A stretch of DNA of 48,574 nucleotides from Luminiphilus sp. (GTDB lineage Bacteria > Pseudomonadota > Gammaproteobacteria > Pseudomonadales > Halieaceae), in NCBI GenBank assembly GCA_012270045.1, contig JAAXJC010000035.1, positions 495 to 49,068 of the forward strand, written 5' to 3'. The translations under genes were made by a program, and so were the position numbers. The notes under the pieces were generated by a model that was not told the DNA's origin, did not search any database, and was given only the letters and a program-made list of their open reading frames with translations. Within the stretch, counting starts at the first letter, position 1, and every line of letters begins with the position of its first letter. Shown piece after piece: positions 12,611 to 16,970 of the stretch.

Positions 12611-13345
12611 TTACAAGTGCCCGCAGCCCAATGCCCGGTCAACCACCTCCCGCGCCAACAGGTCGGCGGTGTCAAATACGGCAACCGGCAGCCCCTGCAA
12701 CTGGGCGGTGTACAGGGAGAGCTCGGTGCAGGCGATCATCAGGCACTGGGCACCGGCATCAATCAGTTGACCAGCGGCGTCGCCAAGGATGTCTGCCGGC
12801 AGCTGTTGCTGCTGACCTTTGGTGGCGAGGATCAGGTCCATCAACCGTTCCTGGGTCTGGGGGGCGGGGTAGAGCAGTTCCTTATCCCGTGCCTGAAAAT
12901 AAGGTTCATAGAGGGATGTGATTTGCAGTGCGGTTGACGCCAGCAGTCCCACCCGCCGCTGTCGGGGTTGAGCCCTGTGCACGCGCTCTGCGGCGATCTC
13001 CAGCATATTGATCATGGGCACCGGGCTTTGGCTCGCGATGTCGTGAAAATAGTGGTGCGCGGTATTACAGGGCATGCAGAGAAAATCCGCACCCTGGGCG
13101 ACCAGTCCCCGGGCCATGGCGATCAGCGCTGGGGCGGGACTGGGCCCTGACCCTTCGATAATAGCTGCGATCCTCGAGGGCACCGAGGGGTCGCAGTCCA
13201 CCAGCATCCGGATGTGGTCCCCATCCCCGGTGGCTGGAGTTAGCTCGATGACCCGGCGTTGCAGGTCGACGGTCGCTTCAGGTCCCATGCCACCGAGAAT
13301 GCCCACAGTGAGCTTGCGCCCGCCCGACTCAGCGGTCACGGCCAA
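12611..13345 (-). CDS. Asp/Glu/hydantoin racemase family protein
   Basis: A 244-residue amino-acid racemase of the aspartate racemase/YgeA type, a PLP-independent two-base enzyme. The N-terminus shows VGILGGMGPEATVDL. The two catalytic cysteines are present, C93 in MPCNTAHH and C206 in IACTELS. Last gene of a four-gene operon; its start overlaps the aminotransferase end by 17 bp. In this setting a plausible substrate is cysteate or a related acidic D-amino acid, converting the D form to the L form for the lyase encoded by the first gene (inference). Confidence 0.88.
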   Translation of the reverse strand: MAVTAESGGRKLTVGILGGMGPEATVDLQRRVIELTPATGDGDHIRMLVDCDPSVPSRIAAIIEGSGPSPAPALIAMARGLVAQGADFLCMPCNTAHHYFHDIASQSPVPMINMLEIAAERVHRAQPRQRRVGLLASTALQITSLYEPYFQARDKELLYPAPQTQERLMDLILATKGQQQQLPADILGDAAGQLIDAGAQCLMIACTELSLYTAQLQGLPVAVFDTADLLAREVVDRALGCGHL

Positions 13346-14576
13346 TTCCCGCCGCTTGGGCGCTACCTTGGATTTCCTCCAGCAGTATGGAGGCCAGGCA
13401 CTCGCAATCGGCTTCGCTGAAGGTCAGTGGAATTCGCATATCCAGCAGTGTTGAAAGAATCTCCCTGTTCCCGGGCACCTCAGGGTGAGTCCCGGCATCC
13501 ACGACGGGGTCCTCGGCGCCGAAGAACTGCCAATGGTCTTGCCGACTGGTGTAGCCGTGGGGCAGTGGGGCGCCGAACCACTTGAGTTCCACCCCCCGGT
13601 CCCGACAGGCCTTGACCAGTGCCCCAATGGCGTCCCCGGTCCACTGTGGCAACCGGAACTGGATGGAACTGCCAACGTAGGACTCATCGGTGGCACGTGG
13701 GGCGAGGGTGACGTCGGCGCTTTGCCGCAGCCGCTGCTCCAAAATTTGGTAGCGCCTGTTCCAGCGCTGGATATTGTCATCGAGGCGCTCCAACTGGGGC
13801 AGCAGCACCGCGGCCCTGAGGTTATCCATGCGCCCGCTCTGGTTTGGAGTGGTCATGAGGAAGGGCTCAAAAACGCTGGGCTCAGGGGCGGCCCTGTGGC
13901 GTTCGTACAGCATGTAGCTGCCTGAATACAGCACGGCCCTGGCCATCATCGCGGGGTCCGCTGTCACCAGCAGGCCGCCTTCGCCAGAGTTGATGTGTTT
14001 GTAGGTCTGGGTGCTGAAACAGGCCACGCTGCCAAAAGTGCCGCTCTTGCGACCCTTCCAGGCTGCACCCATGGTGTGGGCGCAGTCCTCAATCAGACAG
14101 ATACCGCACTCATTGCACACTTGCAGCAGTCGCTCCATATCGGGGATGTGCCCCCGCATACACGACAGCAACAGAAAAGCAGCCCCGGTGTCTTCAGCAC
14201 AGCGTTGCAGATGCTCCAGATCGATGGTCAGCTCCGGGGTGGTGTCGACCCACACCGGTAGCGCACCGACACTGTGCACCGCCCCCGGCACCGGGGCCAG
14301 GGTGAAACTGTTGCACAGCACCCGATCACCGGGGCGGACCCCCGCCGACCGCAGTGCAATAGCCAGGGCGTAGCCACCACTGGCACAGGCCAGGCAATAG
14401 GGCAGGTCCAGGTACTGGGCAAACCGTTGCTCCAGACGGGCGGCTGCCCCTGTTTCCGGGGATGAACCGCCATAGCGGTGCAGCTCGCCACTGCGCATGA
14501 CCTCGACGGCGGCGGCAATCGCCTCCTCGGGCAGGGACTCCTGCTGGGTAAAGGATTTGTTGAAACGTTCGGTCAC
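13329..14576 (-). CDS. DegT/DnrJ/EryC1-type PLP aminotransferase
   Basis: A 415-residue fold-type I aminotransferase. Family landmarks are ACASGGYALAIAL (cofactor phosphate site), LIEDCAHTMGA with D164 contacting the PLP ring nitrogen, and FSTQTYKHINSGEGG with the PLP lysine K193. Most relatives act on keto-sugars. This one sits in a catabolic-looking operon, overlapping the histidinol-dehydrogenase-like gene by 4 bp (14573-14576) and the racemase by 17 bp. Its likely partner substrates are small amino or keto acids or sulfo-compounds rather than nucleotide sugars (inference). No sugar biosynthesis genes are near. Confidence 0.87.
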   Translation of the reverse strand: MTERFNKSFTQQESLPEEAIAAAVEVMRSGELHRYGGSSPETGAAARLEQRFAQYLDLPYCLACASGGYALAIALRSAGVRPGDRVLCNSFTLAPVPGAVHSVGALPVWVDTTPELTIDLEHLQRCAEDTGAAFLLLSCMRGHIPDMERLLQVCNECGICLIEDCAHTMGAAWKGRKSGTFGSVACFSTQTYKHINSGEGGLLVTADPAMMARAVLYSGSYMLYERHRAAPEPSVFEPFLMTTPNQSGRMDNLRAAVLLPQLERLDDNIQRWNRRYQILEQRLRQSADVTLAPRATDESYVGSSIQFRLPQWTGDAIGALVKACRDRGVELKWFGAPLPHGYTSRQDHWQFFGAEDPVVDAGTHPEVPGNREILSTLLDMRIPLTFSEADCECLASILLEEIQGSAQAAGIGRDR

Positions 14577-15907: not shown

Positions 15908-15950
15908 GTAGACCCCTTGTCAGCAGGCAATACGGTTGCCATAACGAGTC

Positions 15951-16970
15951 TCACCCCGAACCCGGATAGGGCTGAAAGCCAAATGCCTTACGGTAGGCGA
16001 ATAGCGCCTGGGCACCACCGGTATGGATAAACACGATGTTCATGGAAGGATCAAAATCACCCTGGCGGATGCCATCGATCAACCCCGCCGCGCCCTTGCC
16101 GGAATAAACAGGGTCAAGCAGTAGGCCCTCGTAACGGGCAAACAGGGTCATGGCCTCAAGGGTATCCTCCCTGGGAATACCGTAGCCTGCACCGACGTAA
16201 TCACAGTTGGCGGTGACGTGGTCTCTGGCGACAGCGCCAGGGCAGCCCATCAGGTCTGCGGTTGCACAGGCCAGCCCATAAACCTTGGTCTCCTGCTGTT
16301 CCCGGGGCACCCTAACCCCGTAGCCCAGCACCGGAATGCCGGACCGGGTGGCCGACAGGCCCGCGACCAGCCCGGCCTGGGTGCCTGCGCTGCCGGTGGC
16401 GTGGGTCACCAGATCGATCCTGAGATCCTGAGCAACTGCCTGGTATAGCAACTCCAGCCCGCAGTGGGCGTAGCCCAGGGCCCCGATGGGGTTTGAACCG
16501 CCCCCCGGAATGACATAGGGGTTTTTGCCCTGGCCCCTGAGTTCTGCCGCCAGGTCGGCCATGGCACCATCCATGTCGGTGCCTCCCGGGACTTTCTGTA
16601 AGTTGGCACCCATCATCTGGTCCAGCATGACGTTGCCGTTCAGGTTGTAATCCGGGTCGTCGCTACCGGTCCGGTCCTCCAGCAGAATCTCGCAGGCGAG
16701 TCCGAGCTTGGCGGCAATCGCCGCAGTCTGACGTACGTGGTTGGACTGGGTGGCACCCTGGGTAATGATGGTGTCCGCCTTCGCCTCTAATGCATCTGCG
16801 AGCAGGAACTCCAGCTTGCGGGTTTTGTTACCGCCGCCGGCGAGCCCGGTGCAGTCATCCCGTTTAACCCATAGCCGGGGACCGCCGAGGGCCTTGGATA
16901 GCTGGTCCATCGGTTCCAGGGGTGTTGGCAGGTGGGCGAAATGGAGTCGGGGAAAACGTGACAGCAGCAT
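15951..16970 (-). CDS. L-cysteate sulfo-lyase / D-cysteine desulfhydrase family
   Basis: A 339-residue fold-type II PLP lyase of the ACC deaminase/DcyD/CuyA group. The PLP lysine is K49 in GGGNKTRKLEF. It also shows KRDDCTGL, GATQSNHVRQTAA, ILLEDRTG, the HATGSAGTQAGL phosphate-binding loop and the C-terminal FIHTGGAQALF. From memory, KRDDCTGL, LLEDRTG and HATGSAGTQAGL are closer to CuyA (cysteate to pyruvate, ammonia and sulfite) than to enteric DcyD; an alignment would decide. First gene of the operon that continues with HisD-like, aminotransferase and racemase genes, which supports the sulfonate reading. Confidence 0.85.
   Translation of the reverse strand: MLLSRFPRLHFAHLPTPLEPMDQLSKALGGPRLWVKRDDCTGLAGGGNKTRKLEFLLADALEAKADTIITQGATQSNHVRQTAAIAAKLGLACEILLEDRTGSDDPDYNLNGNVMLDQMMGANLQKVPGGTDMDGAMADLAAELRGQGKNPYVIPGGGSNPIGALGYAHCGLELLYQAVAQDLRIDLVTHATGSAGTQAGLVAGLSATRSGIPVLGYGVRVPREQQETKVYGLACATADLMGCPGAVARDHVTANCDYVGAGYGIPREDTLEAMTLFARYEGLLLDPVYSGKGAAGLIDGIRQGDFDPSMNIVFIHTGGAQALFAYRKAFGFQPYPGSG

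What the first reader, a model, noticed from the sequence alone, without database searches (positions are those of the whole stretch)
12611..16970. Four-gene operon that may degrade an amino-sulfonate such as D-cysteinolate
Seen: a CuyA/DcyD-type lyase, a HisD-family dehydrogenase with all catalytic and zinc residues, a DegT-type aminotransferase and an Asp/Glu-type racemase with both cysteines, spaced 43 bp, -4 bp and -17 bp. Known: HisD oxidises an amino alcohol to an amino acid, HpsN does this type of oxidation on dihydroxypropanesulfonate, and CuyA cleaves L-cysteate. Inference: D-cysteinolate to D-cysteate (HisD-like), D to L (racemase), then pyruvate, ammonia and sulfite (lyase), with the aminotransferase handling sulfopyruvate or a side product. 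I do not know this gene set as a described unit. No sulfonate transporter or sulfite exporter is seen.
Basis: partly seen in the sequence, partly recalled or inferred. Interest (0 to 1): 0.72.

Follow-up and report, generated by a model that had tools for sequence, protein, structure and literature searches.

The report
Widespread operon degrading an amino-sulfonate
Four neighbouring genes look like a pathway that turns a small sulfur-containing amino compound, probably the algal osmolyte cysteinolic acid, into pyruvate, ammonia and sulfite; the same set recurs in distant bacteria and on plasmids, and includes an aminotransferase whose job there is unknown.

Summary
In detail: four minus-strand ORFs at 12611-16970 with gaps of 43, -4 and -17 bp. 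The outer two pass NCBIfam's cut-offs for CuyA (D-cysteate sulfo-lyase) and CuyB (cysteate racemase). The HisD-like protein is of HpsN type: sulfonate motif GRYAH plus the zinc and catalytic residues, but in a clade holding none of the 10 HpsN rows from hpsNOP operons. The DegT protein passes no named-function model.

All 10 plasmid records with the DegT carry all four genes, 7 with a taurine-type ABC transporter. None of 39 DegT-bearing stretches holds hpsO, hpsP or suyAB.

Against it: 12 of 19 genomes with this HisD type lack CuyA above cut-off, and 5 of 17 CuyA genomes lack CuyB. In 292 Rhodobacterales-order genomes the DegT tracks SalA, acyltransferase of the cysteinolate aminolipid (241 both, 41 neither, 10 one only), but a tree-aware test is inconclusive. 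Nothing was assayed.

The parts
15951..16970 (-). CuyA: PLP-dependent D-cysteate sulfo-lyase (first gene of the set)
   Evidence: NF052482 524 bits, cut-off 450; K49 invariant in 27 rows
14573..15907 (-). HpsN-like (HisD-superfamily) NAD/zinc dehydrogenase, proposed cysteinolate dehydrogenase
   Evidence: Best solved relative HpsN 8v35, E 1.7e-144; GRYAH, Q246, H249, E314, H315, D348, K349, H407; own clade 100/99
13329..14576 (-). DegT-type PLP aminotransferase, reaction unknown; proposed to act at C2 of a C3 sulfonate
   Evidence: PF01041 180 bits; no NCBIfam function model over its cut-off; DegT fold, Z 44.0; linkage
12611..13345 (-). CuyB: cysteate racemase
   Evidence: NF052483 263 bits, cut-off 190; C93 and C206 invariant in 23 rows

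Best explanation
The four genes form one operon that breaks down a C3 amino-sulfonate through cysteate (about 0.8 for that much), most likely cysteinolate (2-amino-3-hydroxypropane-1-sulfonate). The HpsN-like zinc enzyme oxidises the CH2OH of (R)-cysteinolate with two NAD+ to L-(R)-cysteate, with the sulfonate held by His125 and Lys349 and the amino group on zinc; CuyB racemises L- to D-cysteate; CuyA splits D-cysteate into pyruvate, ammonia and sulfite. DegT is a transaminase at C2, somewhat more likely between cysteinolate and 3-hydroxy-2-oxopropanesulfonate (to take in the other enantiomer or a DHPS-derived ketone) than between cysteate and sulfopyruvate. Shown here: families, key residues, clade, recurrent linkage. 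Inferred: the substrate, its stereochemistry, the DegT reaction and the order of steps.
For: CuyA and CuyB over curated cut-offs. HpsN motif and residues; the solved HpsN accepts L-cysteate in the R-sulfolactate product site with the same coordination and did not act on histidinol (PMC11382572, passages and section 2.4). Own clade, apart from all 10 hpsNOP rows. Linkage: 10 of 10 plasmid DegT loci have all four genes; of 28 genome-contig loci outside Rhodobacterales 18 have HisD beside DegT and 3 have all four. Taurine-type ABC transporter in 7 of 10 plasmid loci, one of whose binding proteins passes the taurine model (337 bits, cut-off 304). G240 and G224 keep an hpsN-hpsO-hpsP locus besides a HisD-like gene linked to CuyA or CuyAB. 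No sulfolactate dehydrogenase was recognised in the units except beside L056.
Against: No assay. Residues do not tell an amine from a hydroxyl at C2. DegT has no needed role in the simple scheme. Of 19 genomes with a HisD of the window's type (59-100% identity, one split gene included), 12 have no CuyA over the cut-off, so CuyA cannot be the end point everywhere; a group-II decarboxylase stands near HisD-DegT in only 4 loci. Of 17 genomes with CuyA over the cut-off 5 have no CuyB over its cut-off. L056 has an Ldh_2 gene after HisD, which fits DHPS. HpsN rows themselves are not one clade.
Confidence: 0.5

Rival explanations
1. A DHPS route by way of cysteate: the HpsN-like enzyme makes R-sulfolactate, a sulfolactate dehydrogenase encoded elsewhere makes sulfopyruvate, DegT is the unidentified cysteate aminotransferase (Coa) and makes L-cysteate, then CuyB and CuyA.
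For: This is the third DHPS route of PMC11382572, which says that the aminotransferase and CuyB genes are unknown in R. pomeroyi; three of its steps match the operon and DegT fills the gap. HpsN motif is complete. L056 has DegT, HisD and an Ldh_2 gene in a row, and its HisD groups with Cupriavidus HpsN.
Against: No hpsO, hpsP or suyAB in 39 DegT-bearing stretches and no sulfolactate dehydrogenase in the units read except near L056; the L056 gene scores 163 bits against a cut-off of 500 for L-sulfolactate dehydrogenase. Taurine-type transporters suit an amino-sulfonate better. G240 and G224 have hpsNOP besides. Sulfolactate dehydrogenase was not sought in whole genomes.
Confidence: 0.25
2. A cysteate or sulfopyruvate module: CuyA, DegT and CuyB handle imported cysteate or sulfopyruvate, and the HpsN-like enzyme is an add-on for some other sulfonated alcohol.
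For: CuyA and DegT stand together without HisD within 8 kb in L013 and L027, and CuyB with DegT in L041.
Against: HisD-DegT without CuyA is the commonest arrangement outside Rhodobacterales (12 of 28 loci HisD only, 2 more with CuyB), and the HisD copies fall in at least three lineages that joined the set.
Confidence: 0.18
3. Ordinary unlinked genes: a spare histidinol dehydrogenase and a sugar aminotransferase that happen to lie beside cuyA and cuyB.
For: TIGR00069 hisD is passed (417 bits, cut-off 244) and the DegT fold is mostly known from sugar aminotransferases.
Against: HpsN motif in place of that of HisD; the genome has a second HisD-family gene on contig C71; the linkage recurs across classes and plasmids.
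Confidence: 0.02

Closest known systems
CuyA/CuyB cysteate pathway (cuyA-cuyR-cuyZ of Ruegeria pomeroyi; D-cysteate and CuyB cited to Liu et al. 2024, PMC11193023, not held, seen as a citation)
   Same: CuyA and CuyB over the curated cut-offs; LysR and sulfite-exporter-type genes beside many relatives
   Different: An HpsN-like dehydrogenase and a DegT aminotransferase are added; no exporter at this locus
HpsN, R-DHPS 3-dehydrogenase (PDB 8v35)
   Same: Motif GRYAH, zinc ligands, catalytic Glu/His and the sulfonate Lys; 54% identity to Cupriavidus HpsN
   Different: Separate clade; no hpsO/hpsP or suyAB beside it; linked with CuyA, CuyB, DegT
Histidinol dehydrogenase HisD
   Same: Fold family; passes TIGR00069; shared zinc ligands
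   Different: Lacks the HisD motif reported in PMC11382572; Lys where the four HisD rows have Tyr
DegT/DnrJ/EryC1/StrS aminotransferases such as AHBA synthase 1b9h and GDP-perosamine synthase 3bn1
   Same: Same fold, Z 44.0 and 43.5
   Different: 24-25% identity; other gene partners

Membership tests
CuyA, D-cysteate sulfo-lyase | Score over the curated cut-off of NF052482 and not of DcyD/ACC deaminase models | tested here: met
   524 against 450; DcyD and ACC deaminase models below theirs
CuyA, D-cysteate sulfo-lyase | Releases sulfite from D-cysteate | not testable with these tools
   No assay
CuyB, cysteate racemase | Score over the curated cut-off of NF052483 | tested here: met
   263 against 190
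CuyB, cysteate racemase | Two catalytic cysteines of the Asp/Glu racemase fold (recalled feature) | tested here: met
   C93 and C206 invariant in 23 rows
HpsN, DHPS 3-dehydrogenase | Motif G-R-Y-A/S-H (PMC11382572) | tested here: met
   GRYAH at 121-125
HpsN, DHPS 3-dehydrogenase | Zinc ligands, catalytic Glu/His, sulfonate Lys | tested here: met
   Q246, H249, D348, H407, E314, H315, K349
HpsN, DHPS 3-dehydrogenase | Groups with HpsN of hpsNOP operons | tested here: not met
   22-row clade 100/99 without any of the 10 hpsNOP rows; those rows are not one clade themselves
HpsN, DHPS 3-dehydrogenase | Oxidises R-DHPS | not testable with these tools
   No assay
HisD, histidinol dehydrogenase | HisD motif G-S-A-P-L in place of G-R-Y-A/S-H | tested here: not met
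   GRYAH; a second HisD-family gene on G000:C71, a partial match of residues 85-415
DegT-family aminotransferase | Pfam PF01041, fold and PLP lysine | tested here: met
   180 bits; Z 44.0 to 1b9h; K193 invariant in 24 rows
Cysteate:2-oxoglutarate aminotransferase (Coa) | Interconverts cysteate and sulfopyruvate | not testable with these tools
   No gene for Coa is known in PMC11382572; no assay

The most novel reading that the evidence does not exclude
The DegT protein interconverts cysteinolate and 3-hydroxy-2-oxopropanesulfonate. In Rhodobacterales, where it mostly stands alone near genes read as glmU and glmS, it makes the cysteinolate head group of the SAL aminolipid; in the operon seen here and on plasmids it works with an HpsN-like cysteinolate dehydrogenase, CuyB and CuyA to consume cysteinolate. 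The lead is that DegT and SalA agree in 282 of 292 genomes; the tree-aware test was inconclusive.
Probability: 0.3. Interest if true: 0.75.

Novelty: new variant of a known kind. Interest (0 to 1): 0.6.

Why it matters
Cysteinolic acid occurs in many marine microalgae at intracellular levels in the range of DHPS (PMC8703288, passages), and it is the head group of a roseobacter lipid for which only the last acyltransferase is known (PMC11631085 and PMC8319176, passages). My searches of the open-access library listed no paper that names catabolic genes for cysteinolate (listings and passages only; Burchill and Williams 2022 and Liu et al. 2024 were not held). If the reading is right, this gene set is a marker for cysteinolate turnover, movable on plasmids, and it makes an open step of the marine sulfur cycle testable with four purified enzymes.

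Tried and rejected
Histidinol dehydrogenase, DcyD and ACC deaminase readings were rejected on motif and curated cut-offs.

To see where cysteate or sulfopyruvate could go, three enzymes were sought in 49 DegT-bearing genomes: Xsc in 34 at E 1e-150 (32 over the cut-off), SuyB in 9 at E 1e-60, ComE in 17 at E 1e-20 (8 over the cut-off); the window's genome had none at these limits. Xsc over the cut-off is present in all four genomes with the decarboxylase near HisD-DegT (G196, G198, G230, G233), but it is common in the set, so this says little. It did not decide DegT's reaction.

Promoter and terminator scans found no more than shuffles. The fold searches gave the DegT fold and no substrate. Residue positions that separate the window's clade from HpsN did not point to amine over hydroxyl. 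The first two GlmS trees held rows read in a wrong frame; only one search counts. No control gene was run for the SalA-DegT agreement. The configuration of natural cysteinolate was sought and not found.
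Full report
What is there. On the minus strand four genes follow each other: lyase 16970-15951, HisD-like 15907-14573, DegT 14576-13329, racemase 13345-12611, with gaps of 43, -4 and -17 bp. Curated models call the outer two D-cysteate sulfo-lyase CuyA (524 bits, cut-off 450) and cysteate racemase CuyB (263 bits, cut-off 190); DcyD and ACC deaminase models stay below their cut-offs. 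The middle two get only broad names: hisD (417 bits, cut-off 244) and Pfam DegT (180 bits).

The HisD-like protein is of sulfonate type. Its best solved relatives are HpsN, E 1.7e-144, against 1.7e-73 for the best histidinol dehydrogenase. PMC11382572 (sections 2.3-2.6 and discussion; passages) gives the motif G-R-Y-A/S-H for HpsN and G-S-A-P-L for HisD; the motif's His and Lys353 hold the sulfonate. The window protein has GRYAH, K349 and the zinc and catalytic residues. The paper's HpsN bound L-cysteate as a product mimic and did not act on histidinol.

Tree. In 66 rows (63 different; L001, L004 and L005 are copies of the window and G034 loci) the window protein lies in a clade of 22 rows (100/99) that holds 19 of the 20 rows of HisD-DegT operons and none of the 10 rows of hpsNOP operons; the twentieth, from L056, groups with Cupriavidus HpsN. 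HisD copies of the plasmid-type operons lie elsewhere: 7 of 9 with all 3 Roseobacter CuyAB-linked copies in a 12-row clade (99/92), and 2 Paracoccus copies apart (100/100). The hpsNOP rows are not one clade themselves. So HpsN-type enzymes from at least three lineages have joined this gene set.

The gene set recurs. Partners on the same strand within 8 kb: of 28 loci not labelled Rhodobacterales, 12 have HisD only, 2 HisD and CuyB, 1 HisD and CuyA, 3 all four, 2 CuyA only, 1 CuyB only, 7 none (three of these seven, L022, L032 and L071, fall with the roseobacter DegT clade); of 52 Rhodobacterales loci 51 have none and 1 has all four. In the plasmid collection 10 records have the DegT at E 1e-60 and all 10 have all four genes (regions read). 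Of these 10, 7 have a taurine-type ABC transporter (L118, L120-L123, L126, L162) and 1 a TRAP transporter (L119); 6 have a YeiH-type or 'putative sulfate exporter' gene (L119, L121, L123, L125, L126, L162) and 2 a TauE gene (L119, L124); 7 have a LysR gene beside CuyA (L118-L123, L162). None of the 39 DegT-bearing stretches shown (L066 and L133 are one locus) has hpsO, hpsP or suyAB at the limits used. Among 196 relatives of the window's genome 4, itself included, have the DegT at E 1e-40; the same-genus G034 has all four genes in the same order.

Results that cut against a fixed four-step pathway. Of 49 DegT-bearing genomes CuyA is over its cut-off in 17 and CuyB in 14; 12 have both, 5 have CuyA alone (G198, G213, G227, G232, G240) and 2 CuyB alone (G202, G203). 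Of 19 genomes with a HisD of the window's type, 12 have no CuyA over the cut-off, some of them drafts or MAGs. In four Oceanospirillales loci (L008, L010, L053, L057) a group-II PLP decarboxylase stands near, one of the four checked by Pfam (PF00282) and the rest placed by clustering; it could turn cysteate into taurine, and Xsc is present in those four genomes. For the other CuyA-less genomes the end of the path is unexplained.

What it most likely does. CuyB interconverts L- and D-cysteate and CuyA prefers D (PMC11382572; its source is not held). An HpsN-type enzyme keeps one spatial arrangement, R-DHPS to R-sulfolactate; the same arrangement is R-cysteinolate to L-cysteate (CIP rules; the paper equates L- with R-cysteate). 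G240 and G224 keep an hpsN-hpsO-hpsP locus besides a HisD-like gene linked to CuyA or CuyAB; in G219 a second copy falls in the HpsN branch. This suggests different substrates. The rival, DHPS through sulfolactate and sulfopyruvate with DegT as Coa, lacks a sulfolactate dehydrogenase in the units; L056, where an Ldh_2 gene follows HisD, speaks for it.

The DegT enzyme. Model pLDDT 89.6; its fold is that of sugar and amino-ketone aminotransferases (Z 44.0, rmsd 2.4, 371 residues to 1b9h). In a quick tree of 93 rows it forms a clade with HisD-DegT operons (27 rows, window included), one with plasmid-type operons (11 rows) and a 53-row clade of stand-alone copies, mostly roseobacters, near genes that I read by eye as glmU and glmS. 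Roseobacters make an aminolipid with a cysteinolate head group; SalA is its last acyltransferase (PMC8319176, passages and section 15; PMC11631085, passages). I picked SalA in Ruegeria (L173) by HX5D, Arg135 and Val189, with the start codon chosen so that the numbering fits. In 292 genomes of the order: DegT 250 (E 1e-90), SalA 242 (E 1e-60), both 241, DegT only 9, SalA only 1, neither 41, counted from the lists; Fisher p 5e-40 without regard to kinship. On a quick GlmS tree of 80 of them (all 51 that lack one or both, 29 of 241 with both) each trait changes 9 times; on starred branches there are 3 and 6 independent pairs, none going opposite ways on average, median p 0.5. The agreement is a lead; a gene tied to the same clades for other reasons would look alike.

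Limits. Nothing was assayed; the residues do not tell amine from hydroxyl; the four-gene unit was not found in print in the searches named above, but key subscription papers were out of reach. On checking, two facts (12 of 19 genomes without CuyA, 5 of 17 without CuyB) were added, and the confidence of the best reading was set with them in mind.

Noticed in passing
window 1190-4630: Selenocysteine tRNA (1190-1283, minus strand), selB (1290-3230) and selA (3227-4630) stand together, so the organism may use selenocysteine.
   Followed up: no
window 17241-17893: Upstream of CuyA, same strand: an ORF read by eye as a small XRE-type regulator, followed upstream by a DUF6249 protein (17459-17893; 37.1 bits, cut-off 33). 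Not seen as a partner in relatives, but not searched for.
   Followed up: no
L012:8657-9974 and L126:8602-12235: HisD of the Marinomonas locus, and HisD and CuyA of the Polaromonas plasmid, appear as two hits in different frames; sequencing error and decay were not told apart.
   Followed up: no
L008:6001-7464, and the same cluster in L010, L053, L057: A group-II PLP decarboxylase (PF00282) beside the LysR gene of HisD-DegT in Oceanospirillales; a candidate for cysteate to taurine.
   Followed up: partly
L138-L146: A third HisD-superfamily clade (9 rows, 100/98) between HisD and HpsN types: Lys, Tyr/Phe, Pro, Met/Leu where HpsN has Arg, Tyr, Ala/Ser, His, but with the sulfonate-site Lys kept. 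Substrate unknown.
   Followed up: partly
L054:10001-17600: In a Hoeflea MAG the DegT stands beside genes read by eye as xsc, a taurine-type regulator and a taurine aminotransferase, with TauA/TauB-like hits.
   Followed up: no
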